Below are positions 28,701 through 62,158 of a stretch of DNA of 64,000 nucleotides, in pieces. The position numbers and the translations under genes are program-made. The number at the start of each line of letters is the position of its first letter. Position 1 is the stretch's first letter. Source of the DNA: Liolophura sinensis (lineage: Eukaryota > Mollusca > Polyplacophora > Chitonida > Chitonidae); NCBI RefSeq assembly GCF_032854445.1, contig NC_088299.1, forward strand, positions 15,927,608 to 15,991,607, given 5' to 3'. The notes beneath the pieces are model-generated. The model ran no database searches. It saw only the letters and a program-made list of their open reading frames with translations, and was not told the origin of the DNA.

Positions 28701-31700
28701 AATATGGTCACTTATTAATACCATGCAGTTTTTGTTAAAATTTGTGTTTGGTTGCTGAGAGTTCACAAATTTCAGTACATTGGTAAATTGATGATTGGTT
28801 CATTGGTGGTTATATTGTTGATACATACATAGTTGTGGATATTCATTGTTACATTATATTTCAAAACTTAATGTATTTGAAGCAGATTCTTTGTTTTGAA
28901 TACTAAACATTGTCTTTTAGTGTTTCAAAAACAACATTGAGGCATACATACATATGCACCATGCTTTATAACATTGTTCATTACCATGGATGTCATTTAC
29001 CATTTTACAAAAAATGTTAACATCGTAGCTCACACTCATGTAACACACTCAGAATGTGAAAATTTTCTGTGTAAGAGCATTCCAACTGATAAAGATGAGT
29101 CTATGTCTAATTTACTTCTGGAAGTGTGATAATATTATAGACCCTTACATACTCAGACGTGCTGACAGCCTTTCTCTGATGTGTTTGCTGTTTCAGAGAC
29201 GTACTGGAGTAAGGGTAGGTTCTCAGGGTCAGCACATTAACCTTCCCTTGGCCTGGACAGAACTCTCCCAGCTGGCTCAGTGTAAAGGGTCCATCCAGGA
29301 AGGTGGGTAGTGCAGGTCACCATAGCGTAGAAGTCTTGTAAAGGCTCCTTCCAGGAAGGTGAGTAGTGCAGGTCACCATAGTGTAGAAGTCTTGTAAAGG
29401 CTGCATCCAGATAGGTGGGTGGTGCAGGTCACCTTAGTGTGGGAGTGTTGTAAAGGCTGCATCCAGGAAGGTGGGTGGTGCAGGTCACCTTAGTGTGGGA
29501 GTGTTGTAAAGGCTGCATCCAGGAAGGTGGGTGGTGCAGGTCACCATAGTGTAGAAGTCTTGTAAAGGCTCCTTCCAGGAAGGTGAGTAGTGCAGGTCAC
29601 CATAGTGTAGAAGTCTTGTAAAGGCTGCATCCAGATAATTGGGTGGTGCAGGTCACCTTAGTGTGGGAGTGTTGTAAAGGCTGCATCCAGATAGGTGGGT
29701 GGTGCAGGTCACCTTAGTGTGGGAGTGTTGTAAAGGCTGCATCCAGATAATTGGGTGGTGCAGGTCACCTTAGTGTGGGAATGTTGTAAAGGCTGCATCA
29801 AGATAATTGGGTGGTGCAGGTCACCTTAGTGTGGAAGTGTTGTAAAGGCTGCATCCAGATATGTGGGTAGTGCAGGTCACCTTAGTGTGGGAGTGTTGTA
29901 AAGGCTGCATCCAGATATGTGGGTGGTGCAGGTCACCGTAGTGTGGGAGTGTTGTGAAGGCTGCATTCAGATATGTGGGTGGTGCAGGTCACCTTAGCAT
30001 GCGGGTGTTGTAAAGGCTGCATCCAGATATGTGGGTGGTGCAGGTCACCTTAGTATGAGAGTGTTGTAAAGGCTGCATCCAGGAAGGTGGGTGGTGCAGG
30101 TCACCTTAGCGTGCGGGTGTTGTAAAGGCTGCATCCAGGAAGGTGGGTGGTGCAGGTCACCTTAGTGTGGGAGTGTTGTAAAGGCTGCATCCAGGAAGGT
30201 GAGTAGTGGAGGTCACCTTAGTGTGGGAGTCTGGTAAAGACTCCACTCCAGTAAGGTGGGTAGTGCAGGCCACTTTAGTATGGGAGTGTTGTAAAGGCTG
30301 TATCCAGGAAGGTGGGTAGTGCAGGTTACCTTAGTAGGCAGGTGTTTTAAAGACTGCATCCAGATACATGTAGGTAGGTGGGGCAGGTCACCTTAGTATG
30401 GGAATGTTGTAAAATCTGCATCCAGGAAGATGGGTGGTGCAGGTCACCTTAGCGTGTAGGTGTTATAAAGGCTGCACCCAGGAAGGTGGGTGGTGCAGGT
30501 CACCTTAGCATGTGGGTGTTGTAAAGACTGCATCCAGGAAGGTGGGTGGTGCAGGTCACCTTAGAGTGCGGGTGTTGTAAAATCTGCATCCAGGAAGGTG
30601 GGTGGTGTAGGTCACCTTAGCATGTGGGTGTTGTAAAGGCTGCATGCAGGAAGGTGGGTGGTGCAGGTCACCTTAGCCTGTGGGTGTTGTAAAAGCTGCA
30701 TCCAGGAAGGTGGGTGGTGCAGGTCGCCTTAGCATGCAGGTGTTATAAAGGCTGCATCCAGGAAGGTGGGTGGTGCAGCTCACCTTAGCGTGTGAGTGTT
30801 ATAAAGGCTGCATCCAGGAAAGTGGGTGGTGCAGGTCACCTTAGCATGCAGGTGTTATAAAGGTGGTGCAGGTCACCTTAGCGTGTGAGTGTTATAAAGG
30901 CTGCATCCAGGAAGGTGGGTGGTGCAGGTCACCTTAGCCTGTGGGTGTTGTAAAAGCTGCATCCAGGAAGGTGAGTGGTGCAGGTCACCTTAGTGTGCGG
31001 GTGTTATAAAGGCTGCATCCAGGAAGATGGGTGGTGCAGGTCACCTTAGCGTGTGGGTGTTGTAAAAGCTGCATCCAGGAAGGTGGGTGGTGCAGGTCAC
31101 CTTAGCGTGTGGGTGTTGTAAAAGCTACATCCAGGAAGATGGGTGGTGCTGGTCATCTTAGTGTGGGAGTGTTGTAAAGGCTGCATCCAGGAAGGTGAGT
31201 AGTGGAGGTCACCTTAGTGTGGGAGTGTTGTCACAAATGCTCATATATTGGACGATTGCCTGTCCCACTCTTACATGTCTAGTCACTCTGGCTAGTCTCA
31301 ATAATGTTTTACAGAGAAGTCTCTGATATTTGGAGGTTTATTTGTCACCTGGTTAAGGTTGGTACTTTACTCTGGGCTCTCTGCCAATAAACTTGACCGA
31401 GGGGTTGTCATATTAGTGAAATAAGTTCTTAAGCATCAGTTGAGAATGTGGACTCAATCTGCATTATACATTCTTGGATTGATGGTTGTTCGCTACTAAC
31501 CTGGCAAAATCTGCTCAATCTTAGTACCATTTTATGTCCTAGATCTTCACTCTTTTCAGCTGCCTCTGCAACCAATATTTTGGAATGTTCTGAGAGAACT
31601 ATGGCGTGTAGAGAAATAATTTGCACAGTTTCATAAAGGTAACATCTTTAATGACACAACCACATCATTTTTAGTGTAATTTTCATAGTAACTGTATGCA

Positions 31701-34700
31701 GAAATTCTACTGAAAAAGTGGTTTAGTGGTTGGAAAGGTTGAAGATGTCCATTCCCCTGATTTACAGATTGCCTGGATGTGTTGATTATCTCCCTGGATC
31801 AAGCCCCTCTAGAGCACTGTCACATCCCTGCACTGTTCTTCCTGGCTGAGACAATGCTGTATTGGCTGAGAACAGATGTCATTCACCAGCCATATCTACG
31901 GACAGCTGAGATCAAACTACTGAGAGTGAGCAAACAGTTTTCTGTCCCTTGACACAAAGATATTTTACCAAACTTTGTCCGTAACAATAACTGTCTTGCC
32001 AGATGGTTTTGTCACAATTCCAGAATATTAACTAAAACTCCATACGTGTAAATGCTGCATGCTCACAGTCTATATAATTTCGCAGTGTACAGTTCAGATT
32101 TAGACTCGATGACATTATGCATTGTACAGATGGGCCAACTTGTATTCACACGCCTGTTTTACCATCACATGGCGGGAGAACTCAGGGAGGAGAAGGAGTT
32201 CAAGGAGCGACTCTTTACCTACCTAGACGGTAAGATGTAATTGTCAAATTATATTGGTAATAACTTGAATTGGGAAGATCACTGAAGAATTAGTAGGGTG
32301 TGTATCACCTTTACCCGAATGTTGTGTTTTCCTTGTGGTCTGTCAGTCTATCACTCAGTCACTCACACAGTCTGTCTGTCTACATGGCTGAAGAATTAGC
32401 AGGATGTGTATTGCCCTTACCCGAATGCCCTGTTTTCCTTGTGTTGTCTGTCAGTCTATCACTCAGTCACTCACACAACCTGTCTGACTACATGGCTGAA
32501 GAATTACCGTGGTGTGTATCTTCCTTCTGTCTGACTACAGGCTGAAAAATTACCAAAATATCTATCTCCCTTACCCTGATATCCTGTTTTCCTTGTGTTG
32601 TCTGTCAGTCTATCACTCAGGCACTCACACAACCTGTCTGACTACATGGCTGAAGAATTACTGTGGTGTGTATCTTCCTTCTGTCTGACAACAGGCTGAA
32701 AAATTACCAAAATATCTATCTCCATTACCCTAATATCCTGTTTTCCTTGTGTTGTCTGTCAGTCTCTCACTCAGTCACTCACACAGCCTGTCTGTCTGTC
32801 TACAGGACTGAAGGATTACCAGGATATGTAGCTGACTTACCCCAATGTTCTGTTTTCCGTGTGGTCTGTCAGCCTGTCACTCAGTCACTCACACAGTCTG
32901 TCCGTCTGTCTACAGGACTAAAGGATTACCAGGATGCGTACCGCCCATATCCCAATGCCCTGCTTTCCTTACGGTTTGTCATTGCGGTGGGGAAGATCAT
33001 CTTGTCTGATTTGGATCTGGTTACCGCACAAGCAAAGGAAGAGAAGTCTTCATCTGACCAGCCAGACCAGGAAAAGGGGAGTAAGCCACAAACTGTGCAC
33101 AAAGAGAGACAGAAGCTACCGGTATCAGCCTCATCCACGCGGAAAGTAACGACCCCCAAGTCCTTGGCCTCATCATCTAGAGCCACACGCTTCTCATTCC
33201 ACAGTCGGCCAGACTCCACCACATGGGACTCTAAGGTAAGCTGTTTCTCATTTTGTATTCTTGCTGACAACTTTACCAGAAGTCTGGTAAGGACATGTGC
33301 ACTACTTGCCTGTACATATAGCTGTTATTTGACAGTTTGACAAGAGCAGTATGGCAGTATAATTTATTTATAATTTATTTATTTCATTGGTGTTTTATGC
33401 CCTACTGAAAGAATTTTTTATGTATACAACGCAATCAGCATTATGGTTTGAGGAAACTGGGCAGAACCAGGGGGAACCCACGACCATCCACAGGTTGCTG
33501 AGACTTTTCCACGTACTGCCGAAGAGGAAGCCAGCATGAGCTGGACTTGAACTCACATTGACTGCATTGGTGAGAGGCTCCTGGGTCATTGCACTGCACT
33601 GGTGTGCTGACCACCTCAGCCATGGAGGATCCTGTATGGAGTTATGAGGTTTTTTTTTTTCATGCTTGTTGTCTCTGTCAACATGTTTACAGGACTGAGG
33701 TACAGTGTGAAGTAGTGTTTATGCTCTCATGTAACCTTAACGAAGTTTACTCTCACATGGGAGAGTTTGCCAGTGCAACTTGCCAAATGTTGGTAGTTTA
33801 TTCTGGCACTCAAGTTTCCTCCTATAAGTGAAAACTTCTTGAACAAGGCAGTTAAACAAAGGTCAAAAAAAAGAAGAAAACAATGGGAGAACAATTATCA
33901 AAAGAAAAAAAGTGATAAGATTTTGAATACTAGGATGTGTTGTTTAGGCCTAATGAGGTGAAGTTGAGATAAATTCATAGAATAACCTGTGCTGATCAGA
34001 TAACATTCCTTCAGCATACCAAAACATGCACTACATATATGTGTGTGGTTGAATTTGTTAGGGATGTGGATTATGCTCAAGTAATAGAGATTGTGTTTTG
34101 TGTGTACGGACCTGTTCTAGCTGTTCTCCACTGTGTCAAGTAAAGCTTGTGATGCTCACTCTGCATGCTGGGGCAACAGCGGAGCTCTGAGTAGCAGTAT
34201 CCACGACCTAAGCCCCACCCTGTGGCACTCCCTGGATGTCTGGAGGTGCACCAATCATCTGGGCAGAGGGCTCAGTCATGCTCTCCGAGCATTGGCTTGT
34301 TGTGCAAGCGGATTAGCCAATGAAACCTGGTGAGTGAGAAACACTGGACACACCCCCTGAAATGTACACATATTGTCTTGTTCATTTCTGTTTTACTATC
34401 ATCTCTGTGGACTGTAAGGTAAAAATGATCTGCTGTGTACAGATGGAAACGTTTGTCATGATTACGTGTAACTTAATACATTCAGCAAGAAAGATGAGGC
34501 TGGATGGTACAAATGTAGTAACACAGGGAGTGAGATGTGGCTCGGTGGTATTACATGTGCATGTGTTGATGAGTGATCCACAAACATGTCCTGAGGATTC
34601 GCTGCAAAACATGTCCTGTCGATTCGCTGCAAACATGTCCTGTCGATTCAATCTGGACTTGCACCAGATTTCCACATCATGGGGTCTTGAAGACAGTATG

Positions 34701-37700
34701 CGATCAGCAGTGCTTGTGGGGCCACTTGCACAGTCTTTCAAGACCATTTGTATTCTGCTAAAATGGCATGTGTGTGTCACGCCTATAGGAAAGTTTATCA
34801 CAAACTTGCCATTGGTTGATGGTTTATGCCAGGAACAGTGTTGTTCTCAATTCATAGCTGACGGTCACCATATATGCCAGGAATTTTTCATTATGGCATT
34901 TAACAACAATGTAATAAATTCATGTAAATACCCCTCTGGAGACAGTGTTTGGGTGTGAAATGAAGTTTTGGCTGCCCAACTCTCCCTGTTATGTTACATG
35001 TAGGACCTGAAAACTTGTAAAGGCATGATACAGAAAATGTCAGAGCTGATTCCAGTGCCATCACAAACTGCAGTGGACATGTACACGGATGTTTTTGAGT
35101 TATTTTACACTACTGATTACATTCTTTAATATTTTTTCTTTCCTATTTTTTAATCCCAAAGGATTGACACAACCTGTTCCATGTTGATCCTGGCTGAAGC
35201 AGCTAAATCAAACTTGGCTGCTCTAAAGGTGATGCAAAACCTGGCCAAAGGGGAGATTCCCCAAGACTTCCAGGACTCCCCACCAAGCAGCAGGCACACT
35301 GAGGAGTCAGGTAGGCCAGGCTCTAGTCCCACATGATTGAGAAACTGGGTTGTTCCATCGTATGAAATAATAGATCATATGAGATAAAACGTTTGGGAGC
35401 AGGACCTTGATGTCATTTTATGAACGTCAACTTTTCCTTTCCCAGCTCATGACGATGACGTCACATTAAAGACAGTACAAAGGTACAATAGAAACTGATG
35501 CATTGTGGCATTAGAGACATTGGCACTACAATTGATTGTGATGTAACAATGGGTCAAGGTCCTGCTTCTCATAGCGTAAAAAAATATGCCGCATCACCAT
35601 TAGGTTATTTCCTGACAAAATTCCTAAACATGGGTTTATACCCCTTGGTAAAAATTGACATCAATTAACAGTACTACCCTACATTTATACACGTGTATGT
35701 GCTACTTCCGAAAGGTGACTGACATACATATGTGCTACTTCTGAAGGGTCACTGACATATGTATGTGCTATTTCTGAAGGGTCACTGACATATGTATGTG
35801 CTATTTCTGAAGGGTCACTGACATATGTATGTGCTACTTCTGAAGAGCCACTGACATACATATGTGCTACTTCTGAAGGGTCACTCACCTACATACAAAT
35901 ACATGTATGTTGCCTTTGAAATGTGACTGATACACATACACTACTTCTGAAAGGTCACTGACATACATACACCTGCATGCCACTTGCATGTATATATAAG
36001 TTACTGGGTTGTCAGATTTTCCAAAGGGCTTGTAAATGTATCATCTGTGAAAAGGGTTATGAAGAATATTCTGGAATGGCAGAGAGCTGTTAAGTTCATC
36101 ACACTGAAGATTTTATTAGCAAAAAAATGCTTGATGATTTTCTTTAAATGTCTACAGGATCATTTTTATTGGTTTTCTCCTTGCACATGTACTGGCCTTG
36201 TTAATGTCATTAGATAGTCGTTAATAAGTCTATGAATAAAGTACACCATATCAGTATCATTGATGTCCTCAGATACATTCAGCATGGAGAATGGTGACTG
36301 TGGCGAAGAGGATTCACCAGTGAGTGATACCAGCTCTCGACCCTCCCTCAGTGATATATTTGAGCGTAGTGAGGAAGGGGAGACAGAGTCGAGGGTGAAG
36401 CCTTCAGAAATCGACTCCTCCCCTGACAGTTTCCAGGAACAACAACATGTGACAGCAGAGTCACCCATGCAGGACAGACCAGGCAAGGTGCAAGATTGTA
36501 CTGGTGACGGTGGTCAAGAGCAGAGGTGTCAAGAGGATGGCTCACCAGACATTGAACATTCTAGGCAGGAAGATGGGGCACAAGTCACCAGAGGTTTTGC
36601 TGAGGCCAAAAGTAATGATTCTGACCTGGATGGAAAGGGTTCTAAACCAGATGGGAAGGGTTCCAGTCATAAGGAGGAGGATTCCAAATTGGATGGGAAA
36701 GGTTTCAACCAACCCGAGGAGGGTTCTAAGCTAGATGGGGAAGGTTCCAGCCAAGATGAGGAGGGCTCTGTACTGGATGGGAATGGTTCTAGTCAAGAAG
36801 GGAAGGATTCCAGAGGAAATGAGAGACCCAAACCCGTCCTGCGTGACCCAGGTGTGAGTAAACACAACACTGGCAGAGAAGTCTCCTTTGATGAGAACAT
36901 CCAGTTGGCTGTGGTGGAGGAATTGAACACCTCAGATCCAGCCGTTAGTGCTGGTCTGTCTGCCAGTAAGGAGGAAGCCCAGTCCTGTGTGGATTTGGCT
37001 CACCAATCACAGGAGGACTCCTCGGTGCTAGATGCCCTGGACACTAATAAAAGAACTGGTCACAGACAGGACTCTGCGGATCTGTCAGGACGAGGCTCGA
37101 GGGCTAGCTCAGCGCCTACCTTCACCAACCAAGCGGTCAGTACATAGAAGAGCTATTTATTTGATCCTTGTTTAATGCTATGCTCAAAGGGTTTTCACAG
37201 TATTGGAACATGATGGAACAGTGTTGGAACATGGTGCTACAGTGTTAGAACATGGTGATACAGTGTTGGGAACACAATTTTGGAAGAAGTTCAATACTGC
37301 TTGCAAAGTTTATCCTTTTGAATCAAATGGGGAACCATTATGTATTTCATACTTCGTTAACAACATTCTTTGGAAATGTTCACTTCCACATGGATGAAGA
37401 TGGTTAGATTCATCAGTAGAGCAGGTACTTGAATATGTGGCTGATGAACCTCATCTCTTCTAGTCCTGTCCTACACCATATCTCTGCCAAAGAGAGCTAG
37501 ATACAAGTCTGCCTCATACTCACTGACCGCGGGGTAAGTAGGCTCAGGCAAGTTGAACATCACTTAGTCTAAATGAGTCAAGGCTTCCTGTATTATCATA
37601 AATTCAAAAACATATAAACTTGTAAGGAGTTGGCATCACCCTTAGGTTTAAATTAAATAGTGTATCTGTTGTGCGGTTAGCCCAGAACCCCATGGCTGGC

Positions 37701-40700
37701 ATTGGGAGACTGGTATTATGTACACAGAGATCATTGTTTTGTTGAAATCTGGGTGACAGAGTGTGAGCAGCCCTGGTCCACATGGCTTGCATTGGGAGAT
37801 GGGCATCATTTATGCAGAGGTCTGTTTATTTCGATGAATTTTGGTTTACAGAGTGTGGGCAGCTCTGGTCTCCATGGCTGGCATTGGGAGACTCAGACAA
37901 GCAACATGTACAGTGAAAGCAGAGGTTTTTGTTTTGATGAATTGTGGGTTACAGAGTGTGGGCAGCCCTGGTCTCCATGGCTGGCATGAGGAGACTCAGA
38001 CAAGCAACATATACAGTGAAAGCAGAGGTTTTTGTTTTGATGAATTGTGGGTTACAGAGTGTGGGCAGCCCTGGTCTCCATGGCTGGCATTGTGAGACTC
38101 AGACGGGCATCATGTACACAGAGATCATTGTTTTGATGAATTTTTGGTTACAGAGTGTGAGCATCCCTGGTCTCCATGGCTGGCTTTGGGAGACAGGTAT
38201 CATTTACACAAAGATTATTATTTGGTTGAAGTTTAGGTTACAGAGTGTGAGCAGCACTGGTCTCCATGGCAGGCTTTGGGAGACAGGTATCATTTACACA
38301 AAGATTATTATTTGGTTGAAGTTTAGGTTACAGAGTGTGAGCAGCACTGGTCTCCATGGCTGGCTTTGGGAGACAGGTATCATCTATACAGAGGTCTTTC
38401 TTTATTTTGATGAATTGTGGGTTACAGAATGTGGTCAGCCATGATCTCCATGACTGACATTTGGAGACTGGTATCATGTGCACAGAGATCATTGTTTTGT
38501 TGAATTCTGGGTTACAGAGTGTGGTCAGCCCTGGTCTCCATGGCTGGCATTGGGAGACGGGCATCATGTACACAGAGGTCATGGCAGACATTTGCCTCCA
38601 CGGCAGTTCCTCCCACATACAGAAAAGAGCTTTGGTCGGGGACAACGAGGATTTCCGTGAAGTGTTGAGACGACGGATCACGCAGATGCCCCTGTCCAGT
38701 GCAGGGTTGTTAGACTTGGCATTTTTCCACTCCGCAACTGATTCGAAGGATGGCAGTACGTATATTTATTAATATCTGATTAAAATTTGAAGAATATTGC
38801 TATACTGTTTTTATTTGTACCAGATTTAACAGATTTTAGACTGTTAGTTTCTTAGATTTTCTCTTTATTAGGCTGTGTCATCTAGTGCAGTCTGTGCAGA
38901 TTTTCTCTGATTTTCTCTTTATTGGGCGGTGTCATCTAGTGCAGCCTGTGGTTAAATTAGCCCCAACTGATGACTGGTAATTAGGATTTCAAGGCATCAT
39001 TATACATCAGCCCCTTCAGTCATGTCAGTGATTGTTCTAATACAGTACTGATTCGGGGGCAGTAGATCCAGAGTCATTTATGGGTCGGGTCACACCTTAG
39101 ACTTTAAAAGTTGTAACATCCACACCTAGCGGTCAACATTAAGGGGATAATGCAACAACTGGTTTGGCTTGGGTGACCAGATTACTTGTCTTCAGTAAGT
39201 CATCTCAGTGAAGCAGCACTAGATAAAAGAGCAGTGGTAATCTGTCCTGCAACAAGGAGGTACATTTACGTGCACTCTAAGGACTCCTGCGTCATCATAT
39301 GAGTGAAAAATTGTTACGATGTTAAACCCCAAGCACTGGCTCACTCCTAATACAGTATAAGACTTAGTAGGGGAGTTTTGGGTTGGGACTCTTTTGTCGT
39401 CAAAGGTAAGAGTAGTTCTGCTATGTCATGTGACTTGTGAAAAAAGTTAGGTAAGCTTTGTTGACATTAATTTACTGATCACCTGTCCCATCGTGTTCCA
39501 AAGGCACATATCATACCTCTTTCCTTTAGAATCTTCTCAAGTTCACAATTGTTCAGGTTCTTGCTTTTCTTTGTTTTTTGTCTACTCTAAATTACTTTTT
39601 ATGAAACTTTTTAAAGACGCCCATGTTATAGTAAATGTGATCAAAAATAGTTGCTTAACATTTTTGACAGGTCACATGATACAGTTGGGCTGTTTTTACC
39701 TTCACTGATAAAACAGTTCGAACTCGAAACTGCCCCATTCTTTCCATTGAATGTCAGGACTTTACAGTTATACTGTGTGGTATTTGGTTTATAGACTGGA
39801 GTTGGAGGATTCGCTGTGGTGCCATCCACTCTCTGGTGAAGATCTGCCACTGTCTGTGATGGTTAGTTAGTGTCAGTGTGTCATTACATTTTAATGTCTT
39901 GTTTCTGTAGATGAAAGTGACTGGAGTTGGAGGATTCGCTGTGGTGCCATCCACTCCCTGGTGAAGATCTGCCACTGTCTGTGATGGTTAGTTAGTGTCA
40001 GTGTGTCATTACATTTTAATGTCTTGTTTGTGTAGATGAAAGTGACTGGAGTTGGAGGATTTGCTGTGGTGCCATCCACTCCCTGGTGATGATCTGCCAC
40101 TGTCTGTGATGGTCAGTTAGTGTCAGTGTGTCATTACATTTTAATGTCTGGTTTGTGTAGGTGAGAGTGACTGGACTTGGAGGATTCGCTGTGGTGCCAT
40201 CCACTCCCTGGTGAAAATCTGCCACTGCCTGTGATGGTCAGTTTGTGTCAGTGTGTCATTACATTTTAATGTCTGGTTTGTGTAGATGATAGTTACTGGA
40301 GTTGGAGGATTTGCTGTGGTGCCATCCACTCCCTGGTGAAGATCTGCCACTGTCTATGAGGATCAGTTAGTGTCAGTGTGTCATTACATTTTAATGTCTG
40401 GTTTGTGTAATGTCTGGAGTTGGAGGATTCGCTGTGGTGCCATCCACTCTCTGGTGAAGATCAGCCACTGTCTATGAGGATCAGTTAGTGTCAGTGTGTC
40501 ATTACATTTTAATGTCTGGTTTGTGTAGATGAAAGTGACTGGAGTTGGAGGATTCGCTGTGGTGCCATCCACTCCCTGGTGAAGATCTGCCACTGTCTGT
40601 GATGGTCAGTTAGTGTCAGTGTGTCATTACATTTTAATGTCTTGTTTGTGTAGATGAAAGTGACTGGAGTTGGAGGATTTGCTGTGGTGCCATCCACTCT

Positions 40701-49200: not shown

Positions 49201-49229
49201 TTGATTAGGCTCAGACTGAGCCTAATCAA
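49201..49229. repeat. Perfect 29-bp palindrome (14-bp arms, one-base loop)
   Basis: TTGATTAGGCTCAG, then A, then CTGAGCCTAATCAA. Around it GTGGCAGTGATGTGAGC (about 49026) and GTGGCAGTGATGTAAGC (about 49265) form a direct repeat pair. Confidence 0.85.
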
Positions 49230-50070: not shown

Positions 50071-50089
50071 GGCCCCACCTGAAGGGTTT

Positions 50090-50535: not shown

Positions 50536-50784
50536 GAAACTCAAGAAATATATCTTTAATAAAGCAAGTAGCGCTGAAAATGCACCATACTGCACATAAT
50601 AAACTTTCTCATTTCTGCAACAATGTAACTGTCCTGTAACAGCTTCCAACGAACATTCACATGAATGCATGGATTTGGCAAATGTTGCAGATTGTGTAAA
50701 ACAACTCTCAAAACTGGAGCAAATATAAATCTTGCTTACATCTTTAAACGGCAGTAGTGAAAGGAACATAAAAAGCCAGTGGCA

Positions 50785-51215
50785 TATGCATATACAGCCC
50801 AAAACACCTGTCGCATATACAGCCCAAAACACCTGTCGCACATACAGCCCAAAACACCTGTTGCATATACAGCCCAAAACACCTGTTGCATGTACAGCTC
50901 AAAACACCTGTCACATATATAGCCCAAAACACCTGTCACATATACAGCCCAAAATGCCTGTCACACATACAGCACAAAACACCTGTCACATATACAGCAG
51001 AAAACACCTGTCACAAATACAGCCCAAAACACCTGTTGCATGTACAACCCAAAACACCTGTTGCACATACAGCCCAAAACACCCGTCACATGTACAGCCC
51101 AAAACACATGTTGCATGTACAGCCCAAAACACCTGTCACATACACAGCCCAAAACACCTTCCACACATACAGCCCAAAACACCTGTCACATATATAGCCC
51201 AAAACACCAGTCAAG
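50785..51215 (+). repeat. 25-bp minisatellite, about 17 units
   Basis: Unit TACAGCCCAAAACACCTGTC then ACATA. It lies downstream of the oxidoreductase stop. Confidence 0.93.
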
Positions 51216-51865
51216 ACGGAGTAAATCCTACAGCTTGAAACATGGAAGTACATGATGTATACATGTATCAATCACTTTTCAAACGTGTGGAATAAAGGAT
51301 GGTATCTTCCGGGAAATACCAACTCAAAGCTGAATAATTCACATATAAAAATGCATACAGTTATCAAAACTGGACTAATCCATGTAAAGAATGGTTCAAG
51401 ACCCATGAAAGTTAAGGTAAATTGTGTATTTGATATACATGTAAGGCTAGGAAGTATAATTTCTAGATTATAACATGATAAAACACATCCTGAATATAAA
51501 TGGAATACCTTTCCAAAGCGAAAACAATATGTGCAGTGTAGCAGCATAAGACACTTGATGATATTAGCACTGGCTTAGTGTCTTAGGATCTCCACATTGA
51601 TCTCTACATTGGTTCAAAATCTGTTCACAAGGACATCCAGGGCAAGTCACAGCAGACATACTGGAGTATGTAGAGTGAGGAAAATCAAGCTCCCTGGTCT
51701 CAAACCATTGTGTATGAACTTGACTGGTTGAAAACGGTCATAGATATCTTCACAGAAAAAGGTGTGACAACAGAAGGATGAACACATGCAAACACAGAAA
51801 GCATTTCCATGGTCCCTCAACATTAATGGAGCAGGTTCCTGTCACGTGTCCTTATCTACATTGAC

Positions 51866-51991
51866 ACGGAGGTAACTCTACTTTCCTTCCTGGCGTTCTC
51901 TGCAGCACAGATTACTTTACAGTGACAGGGAGATAACTCTATTTTCCTTCCTGGCCTTCTCAGCAGCAAAGACCAGGAGGTGGCTTCTGAG
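51866..51991 (-). repeat. Two-copy duplication of the last oxidoreductase exon end
   Basis: The sequence around AACTCTATTTTCCTTCCTGG (in the coding exon, 51935 on) recurs 61 bp away beyond the stop (AACTCTACTTTCCTTCCTGG, 51874 on), including the copy of CTCAGCAGCA. The copy lies in the 3' UTR. Confidence 0.8.
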
Positions 51992-54900
51992 GCTCTCTTC
52001 TGGTCCAGTTGACAGCAAAGACGAATCACCTGTCTGAACACATCAACAAAATACCATTTATCCCTTTAATGACTAGAAGTGAAAGCTCAAATACTGTTAG
52101 TTTTTTTATTATGACAGAGTTAAAAAAATCCAAAGTTGCCTTGGGATACTTTGTATTATGTCTACATGTTGTGCATTTCACAGGCCTCAAGAATTGTATA
52201 TTATGTATAACTGTATATTATGGGTACTGGCAGGAGTGGTGGTGTGTACTGTTAGGAGGGGTGGGGTGTACTGGGAGGAGGGGTGGATTTATTCGTACGA
52301 GAGGTGAATGTACTGTTAGTGGGGGGGGTGTACTGGGAGGAGGAGCGGGGTGTACTGTTAGGAGGGGTGGGGTGAACTGGGAGGAGGGGTGGGTGTACTC
52401 ATACAAGGGGTGAAATGTACTGGGAGGAGGGGTGGGTGTACTGGGAGGAGGGGTGGGGTGTACTGCTAGGAGGGGTGGGTGCACTGTTACGAGGGCTGGG
52501 GTGTACCGTTTCGAGGGCTGGGGTGTACTGGTAGGAGGGGAGAAATGTACTGGTGAGAGGAGTGGGTGTACTGGTAGGAGGGGTGAAATGTACTGGTACG
52601 AGGGGTGGAGTATCCTGGTGAGAGGGGTGAATACTGGTAGGATGGGTGGGGTGTGTTGATAAGACAGGTGAAATGTACTAGTATGAGGGGTAAAATGTAT
52701 TGCTAGGATGGATGAAATGTACTGGTAGGATGGAGGAAATGTACAGGTAGGACAGGTGAGGCGTACTGGTAAAAGGGGTGGGGTGTACTGGTAGGAAGGG
52801 AGAGGTGGGGTGTACTGGTGCCAGGCTGGGTCTACTGTTGGAAGAGGTGGGCTATACTGGTGGGAGGGGTGAATACTGGTAGAGTGGGTGGGGTGTGTTG
52901 ATAGGACAGGTGAAATGGACTAAAAAGAGAGGTGAAATGTATTGCTAGGATGGGGTTTTGTGTGGGTGAGCCCTGTAAGTGTGTGTTTGTGTGAAGAGTG
53001 AGGGAGTGAGTCAATGAGTGCTTGGGGGAATGCCAAGGGAGGAAGTTACAACTTACAACTCTTAGGTGTGACCCGACCTAGGATTGACCCTTTATCTACC
53101 GCCCCCAAGCAGACACTCCACCCGCTGAGGTACAGGGGTCAGTTGACTGGGGGAGTACTAGGTATGGAAGAAAAACATGAGTGAAGTGTATACGCTGAGA
53201 CCTTTACCTGAAGGGCCTTGAGGAAGGACCTGATTGTCCGATAGTCTGCCCCACCATGACCTGACAGACCCGCTGGAGCATTGCTAAGCTCTGGGCTGTG
53301 TGTTACTGAAACAAAACAAGTGGCTGACCTTACAAGGGCCTAACATTTTAATTCAGGACATAGCTTAGGCCAAAATGTTTTATGACATATCAATTGAATG
53401 AGCATCAGTCCTAATTATTTATTTATTTATTTCATGTGATTATTGCCTTATCCAAGAACTTTTAAACCAGAAACCAGAGTGATCAGAGTGATAACAGGAA
53501 ACTGGACTGATGCAAGGAACTTTAAGTGACCAGAGTGATCACATGAAACCAAAGTGAGCAAGGGAAACTGTAGTTGTCAGAGGAACATTGAGTGACCAGA
53601 GGACACCATAGTGATCAAATGAAACTAAACTGAGCAAGGGAAAGCAGGAGTTATAACACAAAACTAGAGTGATCAGACAAAACAAAGTCAGCAATGGGAA
53701 ACGTAAGATCAAGGGAAACCAGAGTGATCAGATGAAACCAAACTGAGCAAAGGAAACTGGAGTGATCAGAAGAAAACAGAGTGACCAGATGAAACCAAAC
53801 TGAGCAAGGGAAAGCAGGAGTGATGAGAGGAAACCACAGTGACCAGAAGAAACAGTCAGCAATGGGAAACAGGTGATCAGAGAAAACCAGAGTGAACAAA
53901 GGAAACTAGAGTGATCAGATGAAACAAAGCCAGTAATGGGAAACGTGTGATCAAGGGAAACCAGAGTGATCAGAAGAAACAGTCAGCAATGGGAAACAGG
54001 TGATCAGAGAAAACCAGAGTGATCAGAAGAAACCAGTGAACAAAGGAAACTAGAGTGATCAGATGAAACAACGCGAGCAATTGGAAACTGGGGTAATCAG
54101 AGGAAACCAGAGTGACCAGATGAAACCAAACTGAGCAATGGAAAGCAGGAGTGATCAGAGGAAACCACAGTGACTAGATGAAACAAAATCAGTAATGGGA
54201 AACAGGTGATTAGAGAAAACCAGAGTGATCAGATGAAACCATAGTGATCAGGGGAATCCAAAGTGAGCACTGGAAGCTGAAGTGATCAGAGGAAACCAGA
54301 ATGATCAGAGGAAATCAGAGTGATCAGGGGAATCCAAAGTGAGCACTGGAAGCTGAAGTGATCAGAGGAACCAGAATGATCAGAGGAACCAGAGTGATCA
54401 GGGGAATCCAAAGTGAGCACTGGAAGCTGAAGTGATCAGAGGAACCAGAATGATCAGAGGAACCAGAGTGATCAGGGGAATCCAAAGTGAGCACTGGAAG
54501 CTGAAGTGATCAGAGGAAACCAGAATGATCAGAGGAAATCAGAGTGATCAGGGGAATCCAAAGTGAGCACTGGAAGCTGAAGTGATCAGAGGAAACCAGA
54601 ATGATCAGAGGAACCAGAGTGATCAAGGGAATCCAAAGTCAGGAAGGGAAAGTTGAGTGATCAGAGGACACCAGAGTGAGCTAGGAAACCCGAGGGACCA
54701 GAGTAAACCACCACCTTTCCACAAGGTACCGGACAAATAGATTGGAAAACCAAATCAAAAAGACCTGGTTTTGAAAATGCAGCTTCTTAGGTCAAGAGCC
54801 TGGCAGTGGAGCAGCAATCCAGCACACAATGTAGTTCAGCCAACATGAACTCTCAAAAAATAATGTCAACTGCTTCTACCAAGTCATACTGAACGATTAC

Positions 54901-57900
54901 ATACATGTATGTGTAGCAGCTAGAATATAAAGTTGAGATGATGCTAAGAGCTAACACACCTCTCAAGGGGAATGAGAGTCAAGTATATCTCATCCTTTTT
55001 ACTTGAAAGGTCTCCTAGACAACTGTACATGCTTTAATTGCCATTTGTCTCTCCTGAAAAAGTTCCAGTCTCCTAACATGGAGGTACAGAGGTTCACATG
55101 ATCATTTGGGTGATACCTACATGCAAAAGACCAGTGCACTGTACCCAGACAAAACGTGATTGTAGAACTGTTCAGTGAATGTAGAGCTGCCAAGTGTACG
55201 TGCAGTGAAATGCTAAGTTGCCAAATGAGTGCAAAGGTCCCAAATAAATTCAGAGAGGATGGGTGAATAAAGGCTTGGCAGGATCACATTTTTTTAAACC
55301 CTCACACAGTTAATGTACCAAGGAGCTTCACAAAGCTAGATGTACCAAGGGGATACAGAGCTCTAAAGGGGATTAAGGGGATAAAAAGGCTGTTAAGGGG
55401 ATTGATAACTGCAGATAGTTGTCACATAAATAGGAAGAAAAGACGAGTGGCTATGCATGAGACACATAGCAAAATAAAATCATGTGCTCTTAATTATATG
55501 TGCAGGAATTTGAGACAACACCCAAAGATACATTAAAATTAACCAGGAAAGCTGTTTGTCCCATAAGAATGTATACTCTCTTTAAACCATGTGAGAAACA
55601 CCTTTTTGCCTATATCAAGAGTTGATTTTCAATGCCTATGCAGCTATATTCCTGAAATGACCATTTTGGCTGGTTAAAAGTGACCTTTGTACTTACTCAT
55701 TTTTCTGGTGCGGAAATCATATTGATAGACTGGTCCCCCAAACTTACATGTCAGCTCCCCCTATAGGGAACAATTACAATATGTGTAGGTCAACCAGAAA
55801 AAAAACCTATCAGTTTTGTACACAAATGCCTAACATTGGCTGCTTGTCTCATAAAAACAATCTTTGTGTTAGAGATTGGATTTCTGGAGGAAAATGACAA
55901 AAACTGGATACCTCAATCAGTTTTATGATTTCAACATGGAATGTAGCCTTTGCAGAGGGAAAAAGAGGTGTGTTTACTGGATGCGTCAGTAATGAGTTTA
56001 GGCTACTGGATCTTTTCAGATTTTACTGTGTCAGAGACAAAGAACGCGTATATATCAACATCACTATTAGAGACGGGTTTAAAATTATCTTTGATGATCA
56101 CAAATGGAAACTGATCAAGTCAAAACAGAATACCCCAACCTTTATAAATAGCTTTTATCCCCTTATTTTTTTCCAACACAAATTTACCACACTCTTTTTG
56201 TCAGCAAATTTTGACTGAATAATAAATAAATTGAATGCTGTGATGAGAAACTCCGGGTGCATACACACTCATAGGGATCTTTCCAGTCTGAAGCACTGAT
56301 TGACTTAACACACTGTAAGCTTTAACATAAATAAGGGAACCTGGCCACTCACCATGGTGCCATGGACTTTGACTTCTCGTCGGCAGACAGACTCTGTAAA
56401 GGCCACCATGGTGAAGGAGACGGTCTGACCTTGATCAAACTGTAAGTTCACCACCTAGAACATCAAAAACGTCAGAGTGAAGTCTTTAGTGATGTGAAAA
56501 CAAGATTAAAGCTACCAAAGAGCTCAGCTGAAGAAAAAACATGACTGCAAAACTTCTCCTCAATATATAAAAAGCTATTTGAGTTTGCACACTTGACATT
56601 AATACTAATGTTGAGTAACAAATCAGTGACAAAGTCATTAATTTTTTAATTTACCATTACAGGATAAATTAGCATAAACCAGGACTTCCTGGGCAGTACA
56701 ACCACAAGCAGGGCATCAATGATGAAACACCCTTCTTCTTGCATCAGTGTGGTTTACAATGTACAGGTGCAAGCAGGGCTTCAGTGATGAAATAATCCCT
56801 TCTTGTGTCACTGTGGTTTACAATGTACAAGTGCAAGCAGGGCTTCAGTGGTGAAATAATCCCTTCCTGCATCAGTGTGGTTTACAATGTACAGGTGCTA
56901 GCAGGGCTTCAGTGATGAAATAATCCCTTCTTGTGTCACTGTGGTTTACAATGTATAGGTGCAAGCAGGGCATCAGTGATGAAATAATCCCTTCTTGTGT
57001 CACTGTGGTTTACAATGTACAGGTGCAAGCAGGGCTTCAGTGATGAAATAATCCCTTCTTTTGTCACTGTGGTTTACAATGTATAGATACAAGCAGGGCA
57101 TCAGTGATGAAATAATCCCTTGTGTCACGGTGGTTTACAATGTACAGGTGCAAGCATGGCATCAGTGATAAAATAATCCCTTCTTGTGTCACTGTGGTTT
57201 ACAATGTATAGATACAAGCAGGGCATCAGTGATGAAATAATCCCTTCTTTTGTCATTGTGGTTTACAATGTACACGTGCAAGCAGGGCATCAGTGATGAA
57301 ATAATCCCTTCTTGTGTCACTGTGGTTTACAATGTACACGTGCAAGCAGAGCATCAGTGATGAAATAATCCCTTCTTGTGTCACTGTGGTTTACAATGTA
57401 CACGTGCAAGCAGGGCATCAGTGATGAAATAATCCCTTCTTGTGTCACTGTGGTTTACAATGTACACGTGCAAGCAGAGCATCAGTGATGAAATAATCCC
57501 TTCTTGTGTCACTGTGGTTTACAATGTACACGTGCAAGCAGAGCATCAGTGATGAAATAATCCCTTCTTGTGTCACTGTGGTTTACAATGTACACGTGCA
57601 AGCAGAGCATCAGTGATGAAATAATCCCTTCTTGTGTCACTGTGGTTTACAATGTACACGTGCAAGCAGGGCATCAGTGATGAAATAATCCCTTCTTGTG
57701 TCACTGTGGTTTACAATGTACAGGTGCAAGCAGGGCATCAGTGATGAAATAATCCCTTCTTGTGTCACTGTGGTTTACAATGTACAGAAACAAGCAGGGC
57801 ATCAGTGATGAAATAATCCCTTCTTGTGTCACTGTGGTTTACAATGTACAGAAACAAGCAGGGCATCAGTGATGAAATAATCCCTTCTTATGTCACTGTG

Positions 57901-60900
57901 GTTTACAATGTGCAGATACAAACCTGAGATCAACCCATGCTATTTGACACGTATTTGTCATTAACACACAAGCATCAATCAACACAGGAAAACATATGCG
58001 CAAAATCTGAGCTTAACATGTATACAAAACATTTTGGGTTTTTTTAATGTAAATACAGTACTGCTTAATTCTAATGTTGTATCTTAGACATATGTGGGTC
58101 GGAATAACCTTGTATAAAAATATTTTCACAAAATTATTGTCACACACACTGGAATTAGTGAAAATTTTGTGAACTTGATACTATAGGTGTACCTGGTGGG
58201 TAACAACATCATTGTCGCAGTCATACACACATCGCCCGTATGGGCCAGTCCTTAGAGCTTCTGTCACGCTTTCAATGTCAGGAATGTCCACCACAACATC
58301 AACAGGCCAGTGAGTATTTCCCTGGGAAAACACAAGACTGACTTTCAATCTGACTTTCATTCTCAGTTGCAGTTTTATATATACATGTTGTCTTCTCCTG
58401 TTGTAAAAAGAGTAAAAACAGAGTGGATGTTAATCACAGTCCATGCTCTTCACGATACTACCGGTAAACACTTTCAGTACTGAACCTTGATGACCATCTA
58501 CACTGTCCTGGATTATTGCCCTAAAATGTGAAAATATGAAGGAAATTAAAATCACAAGTAATAATAAATACTTACCCTGACTGTTGAGTGAACATGTTAT
58601 TCAATACTGAAAGAAAACAATGTAAAATTTTATATTTTTGTTAGGCCCTCTGGGCGATATGCCCTCTTGAAATTGTCAGTAATATCATTAAACCATAATC
58701 TTGTGCACCGGCCACAGGGAAAATCATCAGGCCAAATTTGCTGAATTTTTACATGGTGCTTGCCAACCTTTAAACCAGCACAACTGAATCGAACAAATAC
58801 ATTTTTGAGACCTTACTGACCTCAGGATTATGAATTTCAATGAAATATTCTCCTTCAAAATATGGCATCTTGTAATTGCCAAAAAACGTTTAAAAATTTA
58901 ATATGCAGGCTTTGTGCAAGAGTGCACAAAACATGCCATTGCAGTTTTCCATAGGAACAGGCATCAAGCTGGCAACAGTCTGTTCTTTCTGTCTTTTGTT
59001 CTCTGCTGTGAGCAGAAGATCAAAGCTACATAATCTCTATGCACTAAATGGCAGTCTCTGGTTCAAATCCAGGGTATTTTTTTTCTCACATTTTTTCGAT
59101 AGCAATCCCTGGAATTTCTGTTCTCAACAGCTAGGTTTTGTGTTGGAATTATCAGAGATTTCTATAAATTCTTGGATCTTGATATTATGCTGCATCCAAA
59201 GTTTGGACATTAGGTCCTGGAAAACAGTGCAGATAGTCAGACTTTTTTGCAGATAAGCAACATCAAGGTAGTGTATACTGTGGGAGGAGATATCTGGAAT
59301 TGTCAGTTTGAGACAAGTGATATTCAGCATTTGTCTACAGATGACAACTGATTATTCCATCCCACAGAATGCACAATGTTTAAATTATACCAAAAAGGTA
59401 AAGAAAAGAGTGATAACTGAGTTAGAAATCATGTGTCAGATCATTGGCTAGTGTCACATATTAATACTGCTTAGTGAATGTAGAATATAACTTTGTGAAA
59501 GTGGGATATTACTTTGTAAATATGGGATATTGCCTTGTGAATGTGGGATATTACTTTGTGAATGTGGGATATTACTTTGTGAATGTGGGATATTACTTTG
59601 TGAATGTGGGATATTACTTTGTAAATATGGGATATTGCCTTGTGAATGTGGGATATTAGTTTTTGAATGTGGGATATTGCCTTGTGAAAGTGGGATATTG
59701 CTTTGTGAATGTGGGATGTTGCTTTGTGAATGTGGGATGTTGCTTTGTGAAAGTGGGATGTTGCTTTGTGAATGAGGGATACTACTTTGTGAGTATGGGA
59801 CATTGCTTTGTGAATTTGGGATATTACTTCGTGAATTTGGGATATTGCTTTGTGAATGTAGGATATTGCTTTTTGAATGTGGGACATTGCCTTGTGAATG
59901 TGGGATGTTGCTCTGTGAAAGTGGGATGTTGCTTTGTGAATGGGATATTGCGCTGTGAATGTGGGATATTACTTTGTGAGAGTGATGTTCCTCTGCTTGT
60001 CATTATCTATGTGTGCATATTCAATCTATTGGCAATTTGATTTATTTCTTTCCTTCTTATTTAATGGCAAGCTCTGGATTTTTTCAAGTGTACAATGATG
60101 GTTAAAGTATTTATTTATTCATTTGATTGGTGTTTTATGCCGTACTCAAGAATATGTCACTTATATGATGGCGGCCGGCTTTATGGTGGGAGGAAACCCT
60201 TGACCGTCCACAGGTTCTTGACATTAGAGCAGAGTGTACAATGCTAATAACAGTACTTCTAAACAAGATCAAAGTGTAAAGGGAGATAACCAGGTTACTA
60301 GATAAGGCTACGTGTTACCTGTTTGACTTGATTCAGGTAAAGCTTGACGGCAGAGTAAGGACATTCCTTCTCCACTTTACAGTCCAGACACCGATTGGCT
60401 GCCCCCTCGGGCTGCAAACACCGGATTAAGGGAAATACATGACAAGCCATTAGGGGAACACATAACAAACCACGACGGGAAAAACATGACAAGCCATTAG
60501 GGGAACACATAACAAACCACGACGGGAAAAACATGACAAGACATGACAGTAGCAGTAACTCATCAGTCACAGTAGCAATAATTCATCTTAAAAGAAAAAT
60601 AACACATAATATAACCACTGGTTATTTTGAATGAGGGCTGTAAAAACAGACCTATGCAACCATTGCCATTTGTTCTGTGCACCACCTGCCTGACTGATGA
60701 CACCCTCATTACAAATTCCTAGCATTATTACCTTGTGTTCCTCGGTAAAGTCTGTCAGCTGTCCGAATGATGACACCCTCATTAACAACTCATAGCATTA
60801 TTACTTTGTGTTCCTTGGTAAAGTGTCTCAGCTGTCCCAATGATGACACCCTCATTACCAACTCCTAGCATTATTACCTTCTGTTCCTTGGTAAAGTCTG

Positions 60901-62158
60901 TCAGCTGTCCGAATGATGACACCCTCATTAACAACTCATAGCATTATTACTTTGTGTTCCTTGGTAAAGTGTCTCAGCTGTCCCAATGATGACACCCTCA
61001 TTACAAACTCCTAGCATTATTACCTTCTGTTCCTTGGTAAAGTCTGTCAGCTGTCCGAATGATGACACCCTCATTACCAACTCCTAGCATTATTACCTTG
61101 TGTTCCTTGGTAAATTGCGTCAGCTGTCCGAATGATGACACCCTCATTACAAACTCCTAGCATTATTACCTTGTGTTTCTTGGTAAAGTGTGTGAGATGT
61201 CCGAATGATGACACCCTCATTAACAACTCATAGCATTATTACTTTGTGTTCCTTGGTAAAGTGTGTCAGCTGTCCGAATGACAACACCCTCATTACAAAC
61301 TCCTGGCATTATTACCTTGTGTTTCTTGGTAAAGTGTGTGAGATGTCAGAATGATGACACCCTCATTACCAACTCCTAGCATTATTACCTTGTGTTTCTT
61401 GGTAAAGTGTGTGAGATGTCAGAATGATGACACCCTCATTACAAACTCCTAGCATTATTACTTTGTGTTCCTTGGTAAAGTGTGTCAGCTGTCCGAATGA
61501 TGACACCCTCATTACAAACTCCTAGCATTATTACCTTGTGTTTCTTGGTAAAGTGTGTGAGATGTCGGAATGATGACACCCTCATTACAAACTCCTAGCA
61601 TTATTACCTTGTGTTCCTTGGTAAAGTGTGTCAGCTGTCCGAATGATGACACCCTCATTACAAACTCCTAGCATTATTACCTTGTGTTCCTTGGTAAAGT
61701 GTGTCAGCTGTCCGAATGATGACACCCTCATTACAAACTCCTAGCATTATTACCTTGTGTTCCTTGGTAAAGTGTGTGAGATGTCAGAATGATGACACCC
61801 TCATTACAAACTCCTAGCATTATTACTTTGTGTTCCTTGGTAAAGTCTGTCAGCTGTCCGAATGATGACACCCTCATTACAAACTCCTGGCATTATTACC
61901 TTGTGTTTCTTGGTAAAGTGTGTGAGATGTCAGAATGATGACACCCTCATTACCAACTCCTAGCATTATTACCTTGTGTTCCTTGGTAAAGTGTGTCAGC
62001 TGTCCGAATGATGACACCTTTACACATTTACTCCTCCCCATCCAGTAGCAGATAAGGTCAAGGTCATGACAGGACTTGGTCATTAGACAGAAACTACTCT
62101 CGTCTTCCCGTCTCCAGTTTCCTCGCACGTAAGAGTGGCCATAGTGCCAAAACCCTAT
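51917..62158 (-). CDS. Gfo/Idh/MocA-family oxidoreductase, last seven exons (5' end not in view)
   Basis: Exons in order of reading: 62158-61973, 60411-60319, 58321-58193, 56454-56353, 55760-55697, 53305-53208, 52033-51917. They splice in frame to 262 residues plus stop. The family uses NAD(P) to oxidise or reduce sugars and related polyols. What is here is the C-terminal alpha/beta substrate and dimer domain: [14 protein letters not shown] (the family's H-D-D helix), [65 protein letters not shown] and [20 protein letters not shown]. The N-terminal Rossmann domain, about 170 residues by family length, must lie upstream of 62158; I found no such exon up to 64000. It converges on TMEM232. The substrate cannot be told. 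Most introns are phase 0. Confidence 0.82.
52205..52965 (+). repeat. 20-21-bp G-rich minisatellite, about 36 units, in the last oxidoreductase intron
   Basis: Unit GTACTGGGAGGAGGGGTGGG. The plus strand has many GGG/GGGG runs at short spacing, so G-quadruplexes are possible. Confidence 0.88.
52990..53142 (-). mobile_element. SINE family B, internally deleted
   Basis: (GTGA)n then GAGTGCTTGGGGGAATGCCA, AGGAAGTTACAACTTACAAC, TTAGGTGTGACCCGACCTAG and the head complement CCACCCGCTGAGGTACAGGG. The middle about 200 bp is missing. Confidence 0.75.
53455..54715 (+). repeat. Degenerate GATCAGAGGAAACC array with an about 80-bp higher-order unit
   Basis: Short words (GTGATCAGAGGAAACCAGA) recur throughout. 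From 54240 to 54620 a longer unit with GGGGAATCCAAAGTGAGCAC and TGGAAGCTGAAGTGATCAGA repeats about five times. It lies in the oxidoreductase intron between exons 55697 and 53305. Confidence 0.88.
54716..55690. other. Intron sequence without recognised features
   Basis: AT-rich. Two small open frames lack family features. Confidence 0.5.
56690..57925 (+). repeat. 64-bp array, about 19 units, in an oxidoreductase intron
   Basis: Unit GTGCAAGCAGGGCATCAGTG then ATGAAATAATCCCTTCTTGT and so on. The variants CACGTG, CAGGTG and CAGAAAC are clustered in neighbouring units (for example CACGTG at 57270-57660), showing local duplication. No exon sequence is included, unlike the junction arrays. Confidence 0.93.
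58322..59470. other. Intron sequence without recognised features
   Basis: No exon, RNA gene or repeat recognised. Confidence 0.5.
59475..59995 (+). repeat. 21-bp minisatellite, about 24 units
   Basis: Unit TGGGATATTGCTTTGTGAAT plus G. It is open in several frames for 60-138 codons only because the period is seven codons. It lies in the oxidoreductase intron. Confidence 0.93.
60104..60225 (-). mobile_element. SINE family A, 5'-truncated
   Basis: TTTATTCATTTGATTGGTGT, TTATGCCGTACTCAAGAATA, GGCGGCCGGCTTTATGGTGG, then a shortened body. Confidence 0.85.
60690..62035 (-). repeat. 73-bp array of oxidoreductase exon donor junctions, about 18 units
   Basis: Read on the minus strand, each unit has 46 bases of exon (GGTGTCATCATTCGGACAGC ... 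CCAAGGAACACAAG) and the donor GTAATAATGCTAGGAGTTTG with 27 bases of intron. The real exon end (61973) is the first unit in reading order. All units I checked keep AAG|GTAA. Confidence 0.93.

What the first reader, a model, noticed from the sequence alone, without database searches (positions are those of the whole stretch)
29281..62035. Minisatellites built from exon-intron junctions, in two unrelated genes
Six arrays (29281-31240, 32280-32970, 37690-38580, 39780-44219, 46208-47018, 60690-62035) each repeat a block of exon edge + splice site + intron edge. Three multiply donors and three multiply acceptors. All expand into the intron only, with the functional exon as the outermost unit on the exon side. 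Unit lengths differ (40, 56, 73, about 100, 110, 125 bp) and unit sequences are unrelated, so they arose independently by a shared process. Other minisatellites in the same introns contain no exon sequence, so the genome expands tandem repeats generally, but splice junctions are hit surprisingly often. Possible readings: junctions as recombination or slippage hot spots (for example through R-loops); selection that tolerates growth only on the intron side; or redundant splice sites that buffer or regulate splicing.
Basis: partly seen in the sequence, partly recalled or inferred. Interest (0 to 1): 0.92.

Follow-up and report, generated by a model that had tools for sequence, protein, structure and literature searches.

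The report
Splice-junction minisatellites in a chiton
In this chiton (a mollusc) short stretches spanning the edge of an exon and its neighbouring intron have been copied in tandem many times into the intron, leaving one splice site next to many look-alikes; the phenomenon was already known from lancelets as 'mirages', and here it looks like a by-product of a genome very rich in tandem repeats rather than a special attraction to splice sites.

Summary
All six arrays exist and each repeats an exon-edge/splice-site/intron-edge block (three donors, three acceptors). 122 junction copies were found; 106 keep GT or AG. Five arrays lie in a TMEM232 gene, one in a Gfo/Idh/MocA-type gene. Contig lengths identify the chiton Liolophura japonica.

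It is not unique to these genes: in 36 loci picked by exon hits (kinesin, myosin, dynein), 9 of 300 exon edges sit inside such an array.

That junctions are hit surprisingly often is not supported. If array seeds fall at random on unique intron sequence, 5.5 of 300 are expected (ratio 1.6, interval 0.75-3.1, P=0.11), and arrays do not crowd near exons. Expansion "into the intron only" follows from geometry plus the need to keep the protein intact.

64 of 116 decoy sites score at least as well as the functional one, and their GT/AG show no consistent conservation or decay. This fits neutral minisatellites, with the exon-proximal copy chosen by exon definition (inferred; no RNA data).

The kind is known: amphioxus "mirages". 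What is new is a mollusc, a rate per junction and a null test.

The parts
29281..31231 (+). Array 1: 56-bp unit spanning the TMEM232 exon 3 donor (functional site AGGAAG|GTGGGT at 29302), 34 junction copies
32282..32969 (+). Array 2: 110/154-bp composite unit spanning the exon 6 acceptor (CTACAG|GACTAAAGG, exon starts 32916), 7 junction copies
37680..38582 (+). Array 3: about 90-bp unit spanning the exon 11 acceptor (GTCAG|CCCTGG, exon starts 38529), 10 junction copies; TRF calls it from 37814, the earlier part is degenerate
39794..44219 (+). Array 4: 125-bp unit spanning the exon 12 acceptor (GTGTAG|GTGAGAATG, exon starts 44150), 33 copies found
43458..43822 (.). Insertion inside array 4 that looks like a tRNA-derived SINE (read by eye, family type recalled, not searched)
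46210..47014 (+). Array 5: 40-bp unit spanning the exon 14 donor (GACCAG|GTACAG at 46226), 20 junction copies
60695..62018 (-). Array 6: 73-bp unit spanning a donor of the Gfo/Idh/MocA-type gene (CACAAG|GTAATA at 61973), 18 junction copies
25741..47286 (+). TMEM232 gene, 15 coding exons (5 of its 28 modelled splice junctions lie in an array)
51917..62158 (-). C-terminal seven exons of a Gfo/Idh/MocA-family oxidoreductase-like gene; upstream exons not modelled. One search put the first exon's start one base too far out (62159); the acceptor TTCAG ends there
51857..51972 (-). Two-copy 61-bp repeat spanning the stop codon of the oxidoreductase-like gene: the same geometry at a coding/3'UTR boundary
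36636..36798 (+). In-frame 42-bp coding repeat inside TMEM232 exon 9, the only array fully inside an exon of the two gene models

Best explanation
These are 'mirages': minisatellites whose founding tandem duplication happened to span an exon-intron boundary. Shown: the sampled genes of this chiton carry many minisatellites, and junction-spanning ones occur at, or at most about three-fold above, the rate that random seeding gives. Follows from geometry: a tandem duplication across a junction always leaves one copy joined to the exon body, so if that copy is spliced the protein is unchanged and all further copies are intronic. Inferred: the spliceosome uses the copy nearest the exon body because sites are paired across short exons (exon definition), selection removes cases where it does not, and later unequal exchange or slippage grows the array neutrally, which lengthens the intron and reinforces exon definition.
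For: Arrays cover 12.6% of 273 kb of sampled loci and 36.6% of the window. 9 of 300 sampled edges lie in an array, 5.5 expected; by hand 7 donors and 2 acceptors. Arrays not touching exon hits show no pull towards exon edges: within 60 bp 7 seen against 6.6 expected, within 200 bp 19 against 20.0. Over all copies found, 64 of 116 decoys score at least as well as the functional site, and decoy GT/AG columns vary inconsistently against the other columns: 9.1 against 9.5%, 25 against 12%, 5.6 against 17.3%, 9.4 against 5.5%, 7.9 against 8.2%, 0 against 4.7% for arrays 1-6, so position rather than sequence must decide. The exon came first: Pfam TMEM232 runs across the junctions of arrays 1, 2 and 4, and from the fifth or sixth residue of exon 11 for array 3; GFO_IDH_MocA_C spans the junction of array 6. 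The same geometry is seen at a stop codon. Sites closest across the exon are preferred when flanking introns are long (PMC9225289, abstract). Amphioxus mirages are reported not to disturb regular splicing (PMC3087553, passages).
Against: Observed counts exceed expectation in both data sets (9 against 5.5; 6 against 2.9-3.8), and pooled 15 against 8.4 gives P=0.025, although the window was chosen for the pattern. Some ancestral introns may have been short: the non-array part of the intron is only 52, 128 and 147 nt for arrays 2, 5 and 3, where intron definition would be expected to favour the copy nearest the other splice site. No RNA evidence for which copy is used.
Confidence: 0.8

Rival explanations
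1. Splice junctions are hot spots for the founding duplication (R-loops, nascent-RNA pausing, or the conserved AG/GT context), so arrays start there preferentially.
For: Ratio observed/expected 1.6 with upper limit 3.1 in the sample; pooled P=0.025 including the selected window.
Against: Not significant in the sample chosen blind to repeats (P=0.11); no excess of arrays within 30, 60, 100 or 200 bp of exon edges (2, 7, 13, 19 seen; 3.4, 6.6, 10.8, 20.0 expected); donors and acceptors both hit, 10 to 5 over window and sample, P=0.30.
Confidence: 0.12
2. The repeated sites are functional: they buffer or regulate splicing, for example by unproductive splicing into decoys that bring early stops.
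For: Use of decoy acceptors would meet an in-frame stop before the functional acceptor in every case tested (3 of array 2's 6 decoys, the ones with AG, and all 9 of array 3; 29 of array 4's 32, the ones with AG); the donor decoys of array 1 lie behind a stop that begins 6 nt past the junction. 100 of 116 decoys keep GT/AG. In arrays 3 and 6 the dinucleotides vary less than the other columns.
Against: In arrays 1 and 5 they vary like the other columns and in arrays 2 and 4 more. Such arrays occur at a near-random rate in unrelated genes.
Confidence: 0.06
3. The arrays came first and the splice sites or introns were born from them (introns from tandem arrays, or intron gain by tandem duplication).
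For: Known in principle in other genes: potato RdRp (PMC4974935, abstract); introns from tandem arrays in human (seen only as a citation within PMC3087553).
Against: The coding sequence at the functional edge matches Pfam TMEM232 across the junctions of arrays 1, 2 and 4, and the extra copies lie on the intron side of a coding-consistent junction. Intron positions in other species were not compared.
Confidence: 0.02

Closest known systems
Amphioxus 'mirages' (Adh3; globins BflGb6 and BflGb9; TnC; PGBD5)
   Same: [quoted passage not shown] both 5' and 3' boundaries; extra copies intronic; unit lengths vary by locus; many but not all copies keep AG/GT (PMC3087553 passages; PMC3902484 passage).
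   Different: A mollusc rather than a cephalochordate; up to 34 junction copies (BflGb6 has 3 or 6 repeat units by haplotype); five junctions of one gene affected; a rate per junction and a null expectation given here. RT-PCR and somatic-instability evidence exists only for amphioxus.
Intronic minisatellite of abalone TSSK1-like (Mollusca)
   Same: A 27-bp tandem repeat in a mollusc intron with differing repeat numbers among individuals (PMC6905558, passages).
   Different: The passages seen do not say that it spans an exon-intron boundary; its supplementary figure was not seen.
[quoted passage not shown]
   Same: Tandem duplication that includes splice signals (PMC4974935, abstract).
   Different: There a new intron arises inside or beside duplicated exon; here existing introns lengthen and no new intron is inferred.
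Competition between alternative splice sites under exon definition (PMC9225289, abstract only)
   Same: Competing sites resolved by closeness across the exon when introns are long.
   Different: That study used a database of alternative sites; here natural arrays offer up to 33 near-identical competitors, untested by RNA.

Membership tests
Mirage (exon-intron-boundary minisatellite, named in amphioxus) | Tandem repeat unit that contains exon edge, splice site and intron edge | tested here: met
   6 of 6 window arrays; 9 sampled arrays read by hand, one with only about 6 bp and one with 7 bp of exon
Mirage (exon-intron-boundary minisatellite, named in amphioxus) | Both donor and acceptor boundaries affected | tested here: met
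   window 3 donors and 3 acceptors; sample 7 donors and 2 acceptors
Mirage (exon-intron-boundary minisatellite, named in amphioxus) | Functional junction is the copy joined to the exon body; extra copies intronic | tested here: met
   By coding frame and Pfam match only; no RNA
Mirage (exon-intron-boundary minisatellite, named in amphioxus) | Regular mRNA splicing is undisturbed | not testable with these tools
Mirage (exon-intron-boundary minisatellite, named in amphioxus) | Copy-number polymorphism or somatic instability | not testable with these tools
   one assembly only; heterogeneous copies within arrays suggest turnover but do not show it
Intron gain by tandem duplication | A new intron formed between duplicated exon segments | tested here: not met
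   Pfam TMEM232 runs across the junctions of arrays 1, 2 and 4 and GFO_IDH_MocA_C across that of array 6; extra copies on the intron side; array 5 lies outside the Pfam domain and was not tested
Introner or dispersed mobile element | Related units at different introns | tested here: not met
   13 of 15 unit pairs within the shuffled range; two pairs share a short similarity. Genome-wide dispersal of each unit was not searched

The most novel reading that the evidence does not exclude
Splice junctions in this lineage seed tandem duplications two- to three-fold more often than other intron sequence, and the resulting ladders of equal-strength decoy sites take part in splicing (as sinks that set the productive fraction, or as a source of length-variable isoforms, as the array 5 decoys could give because the frame stays open for 289 nt past the donor). 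This would make minisatellite copy number a heritable dial on splicing.
Probability: 0.08. Interest if true: 0.85.

Novelty: new member of a known kind. Interest (0 to 1): 0.5.

Why it matters
It takes a curiosity described gene by gene in lancelets to a mollusc and to a many-gene sample: 9 of 300 sampled splice edges (3%) carry an array. Each array is a natural competition experiment in which one splice site faces up to 33 near-identical competitors, so long-read RNA from this species would directly test whether closeness to the exon decides splice-site choice. It also shows why such arrays look 'directed' into introns when geometry and selection suffice, and it offers ready material for intron lengthening. 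Gene annotation in such genomes is likely to be misled by decoy sites (inference).

Tried and rejected
Junction hot spot: tested by count and by distance of arrays to exon edges; not supported. Selection to keep or destroy decoys: one search seemed to show decoy GT/AG varying no faster than other columns, but I had left out the three array 4 copies without AG, one array 3 copy and array 2; with all copies two arrays vary more, two equally, two less, so no consistent signal. Shared unit ancestry among the six arrays: rejected for 13 of 15 pairs. Amphioxus as the source organism: suspected from the mirage papers, rejected because contig number and lengths equal the published Liolophura japonica table.

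Led nowhere: the first regex copy count skipped copies and was replaced (which printed its table, then failed only at saving a file). The automatic site choice misplaced two junctions (L018 called as an acceptor on a decoy, L021 on a decoy donor); both were read by hand as donors. Paper searches for a mollusc case: one search gave 0 papers; one search listed 4, of which I searched two within after that listing (PMC6905558: an intronic 27-bp minisatellite in abalone, not said to span a boundary; PMC3862624: minisatellite only in a reference title), one was the PGBD5 paper already seen in passage, and one (PMC5780484) was seen as a listing only. PMC12005716 (five chiton genomes) was searched within for tandem repeat, minisatellite, satellite and intron: one hit, in the reference list.

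Limits of the sample: all 132 kinesin and 81 myosin rows and 75 of 86 DHC_N2 rows were typed in; 168 of those 288 hits lie in the 36 fetched loci (71 kinesin, 24 myosin, 73 dynein). The first 20 loci were picked by script for most hits per 10 kb and the 16 dynein loci by hand from hit clusters, which favours short introns and so fewer arrays. The 90 AAA_6 rows were not used because their DNA could not be fetched. L002 and L003, beside the window, were not used for junctions.
Full report
What was checked. I built gene models by hand and script: a 15-exon plus-strand gene with one open 3099-nt coding sequence that matches Pfam TMEM232 at 1.2e-103, and seven exons of a minus-strand gene that matches GFO_IDH_MocA_C at 6e-8. 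In one search the minus-strand frame broke between its fifth and sixth exons; moving that donor by hand to the consensus GTAAGT keeps the frame, and that protein was used. Each array crosses one modelled splice junction: donors for arrays 1, 5 and 6, acceptors for arrays 2, 3 and 4. Copy by copy, GT or AG is intact in 28 of 34, 4 of 7, 9 of 10, 30 of 33, 17 of 20 and 18 of 18 junction copies, functional copy included (array 2).

Where it is. The window lies in a genome of 609 Mb in 632 contigs. Contig lengths 96,433,062, 37,343,639 and 19,479,325 equal the longest scaffold, N50 and scaffold_13 given for the chiton Liolophura japonica, 632 scaffolds (PMC11068029, passages). The total length differs by about 31 kb (609,464,459 against 609,495,693). 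That assembly used HiFi reads averaging 8,347 bp, longer than any of the six arrays, so collapse or false expansion is unlikely, though not tested.

Is it special to these genes? No. I searched the genome with Pfam kinesin, myosin-head and dynein DHC_N2 profiles (132, 81 and 86 exon matches), picked loci by exon hits without seeing their repeats, and fetched 36 loci (273,316 bp). Of 168 exon hits in them, 300 edges had a plausible splice site, and 9 of the 300 lie inside a tandem array with at least 6 bp on each side. Read by eye, these are donor arrays in L004, L013 (two), L014, L018, L021 and L034 and acceptor arrays in L007 and L009. L021 has only about 6 bp and L009 7 bp of exon in the unit; with at least 10 bp of exon demanded by eye, 7 remain. 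A further array touching an exon hit in L019 (12-bp unit) fell below the 15-bp period limit, and one in L033 begins about 5 bp past the exon hit; neither is counted.

Is it more than random seeding? Shuffling whole arrays would mislead, because one array covers thousands of intron bases but can hold only one true junction. I therefore counted each array as one founding unit over unique intron sequence. Expected in the sample: 5.5 of 300; seen 9; ratio 1.6, 95% interval 0.75-3.1, P=0.11. With 10 bp demanded on each side: expected 5.1, seen 8 by script, P=0.14. In the window's two genes: expected 3.8 of 41, seen 6, P=0.17; with the shorter periods and array 4 counted once, expected 2.9, P=0.065. 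Pooled: 15 against 8.4, P=0.025, but the window was chosen for showing the pattern. Arrays that do not touch exon hits (61) are not drawn to exon edges: within 30, 60, 100 and 200 bp, 2, 7, 13 and 19 seen against 3.4, 6.6, 10.8 and 20.0. A modest excess cannot be excluded; one much above three-fold can.

Why 'into the intron only'. If a block spanning a junction is tandemly duplicated, one copy stays joined to the exon body. If that copy is used, all others are intron by definition; if another is used, the exon gains intron sequence. So the direction carries information about splice choice and selection, not about a directed growth process. A repeat across the stop codon of the minus-strand gene (51857-51972) has the same shape, and the only array fully inside an exon of the two gene models is in frame (42 bp, exon 9).

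How the cell could cope. On a generic matrix that I wrote from recall, 64 of 116 decoys score at least as well as the functional site, and 100 of 116 keep GT/AG. The GT/AG columns of the decoys depart from the decoy consensus at 9.1, 25, 5.6, 9.4, 7.9 and 0% in arrays 1-6, against 9.5, 12, 17.3, 5.5, 8.2 and 4.7% for the other columns: no consistent direction. (An earlier version, left out some copies and looked more uniform; one search replaces it.) Sequence alone cannot pick the right copy, so position must. The abstract of PMC9225289 reports that, with long flanking introns, sites closest across the exon are chosen. The exons at the six junctions are short (94-320 nt) and their present introns 686-5,394 nt. 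Using a decoy would usually be harmful: every decoy acceptor tested in arrays 2, 3 and 4 (3, 9 and 29) meets an in-frame stop before the functional acceptor, and array 1 has a stop 6 nt past the donor; array 5 stays open for 289 nt and array 6 for 94 nt. Against this, the non-array part of three introns is only 52-147 nt, so some arrays may have begun in short introns. Which copy is used was not observed.

Exon first. Pfam TMEM232 aligns across the junctions of arrays 1, 2 and 4 and from the fifth or sixth residue of exon 11 for array 3; GFO_IDH_MocA_C spans the junction of array 6; exons 14-15 (array 5) gave no TMEM232 match. So, except for array 5, the units were copied from an existing exon edge.

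What is known. Tandem repeats across exon-intron boundaries were named 'mirages' in amphioxus Adh3 and described in two globin genes, at both kinds of boundary, with RT-PCR suggesting undisturbed splicing and somatic instability at Adh3 (PMC3087553, abstract and passages), and again in PGBD5, citing TnC (PMC3902484, one passage). I found no mollusc report of boundary-spanning arrays in the library (searches; passages 64, 69, 70), but most subscription papers are not held. The finding is therefore a new member of a known kind, in a distant phylum, with an estimate of rate and a null test.

Noticed in passing
window 51857-51972 (-): Two-copy 61-bp repeat spanning the stop codon of the oxidoreductase-like gene, the coding/UTR analogue of a splice-junction array.
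   Followed up: partly
window 36636-36798: In-frame 42-bp minisatellite inside TMEM232 exon 9, giving a degenerate 14-residue repeat.
   Followed up: partly
window 43458-43822: Insertion interrupting array 4 with a tRNA-like end and a GTGAGTGAGTG start, looks like a SINE; similar fragments near 17288-17333 and 53001-53140 (by eye).
   Followed up: no
window 1646-4477 (+): Long open frames that read like a hAT-type transposase or a domesticated relative (by eye, not searched).
   Followed up: no
window 14107-14751 (-): Open frame matching CENP-M (Pfam E=6.4e-48); exons of an LYRM7-like gene seem to lie at about 19.9-21.9 kb on the minus strand (by eye, not searched).
   Followed up: partly
window 1-64000 and L004-L039: Tandem arrays cover 36.6% of the window and 12.6% of the 36 sampled loci, very unevenly (0 to 55% per locus).
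   Followed up: partly
L014 1451-2022, L018 6963-9036: A myosin and a kinesin locus where 50 bp or more of coding exon is copied together with its donor several to many times, candidates for RNA tests of decoy use.
   Followed up: partly
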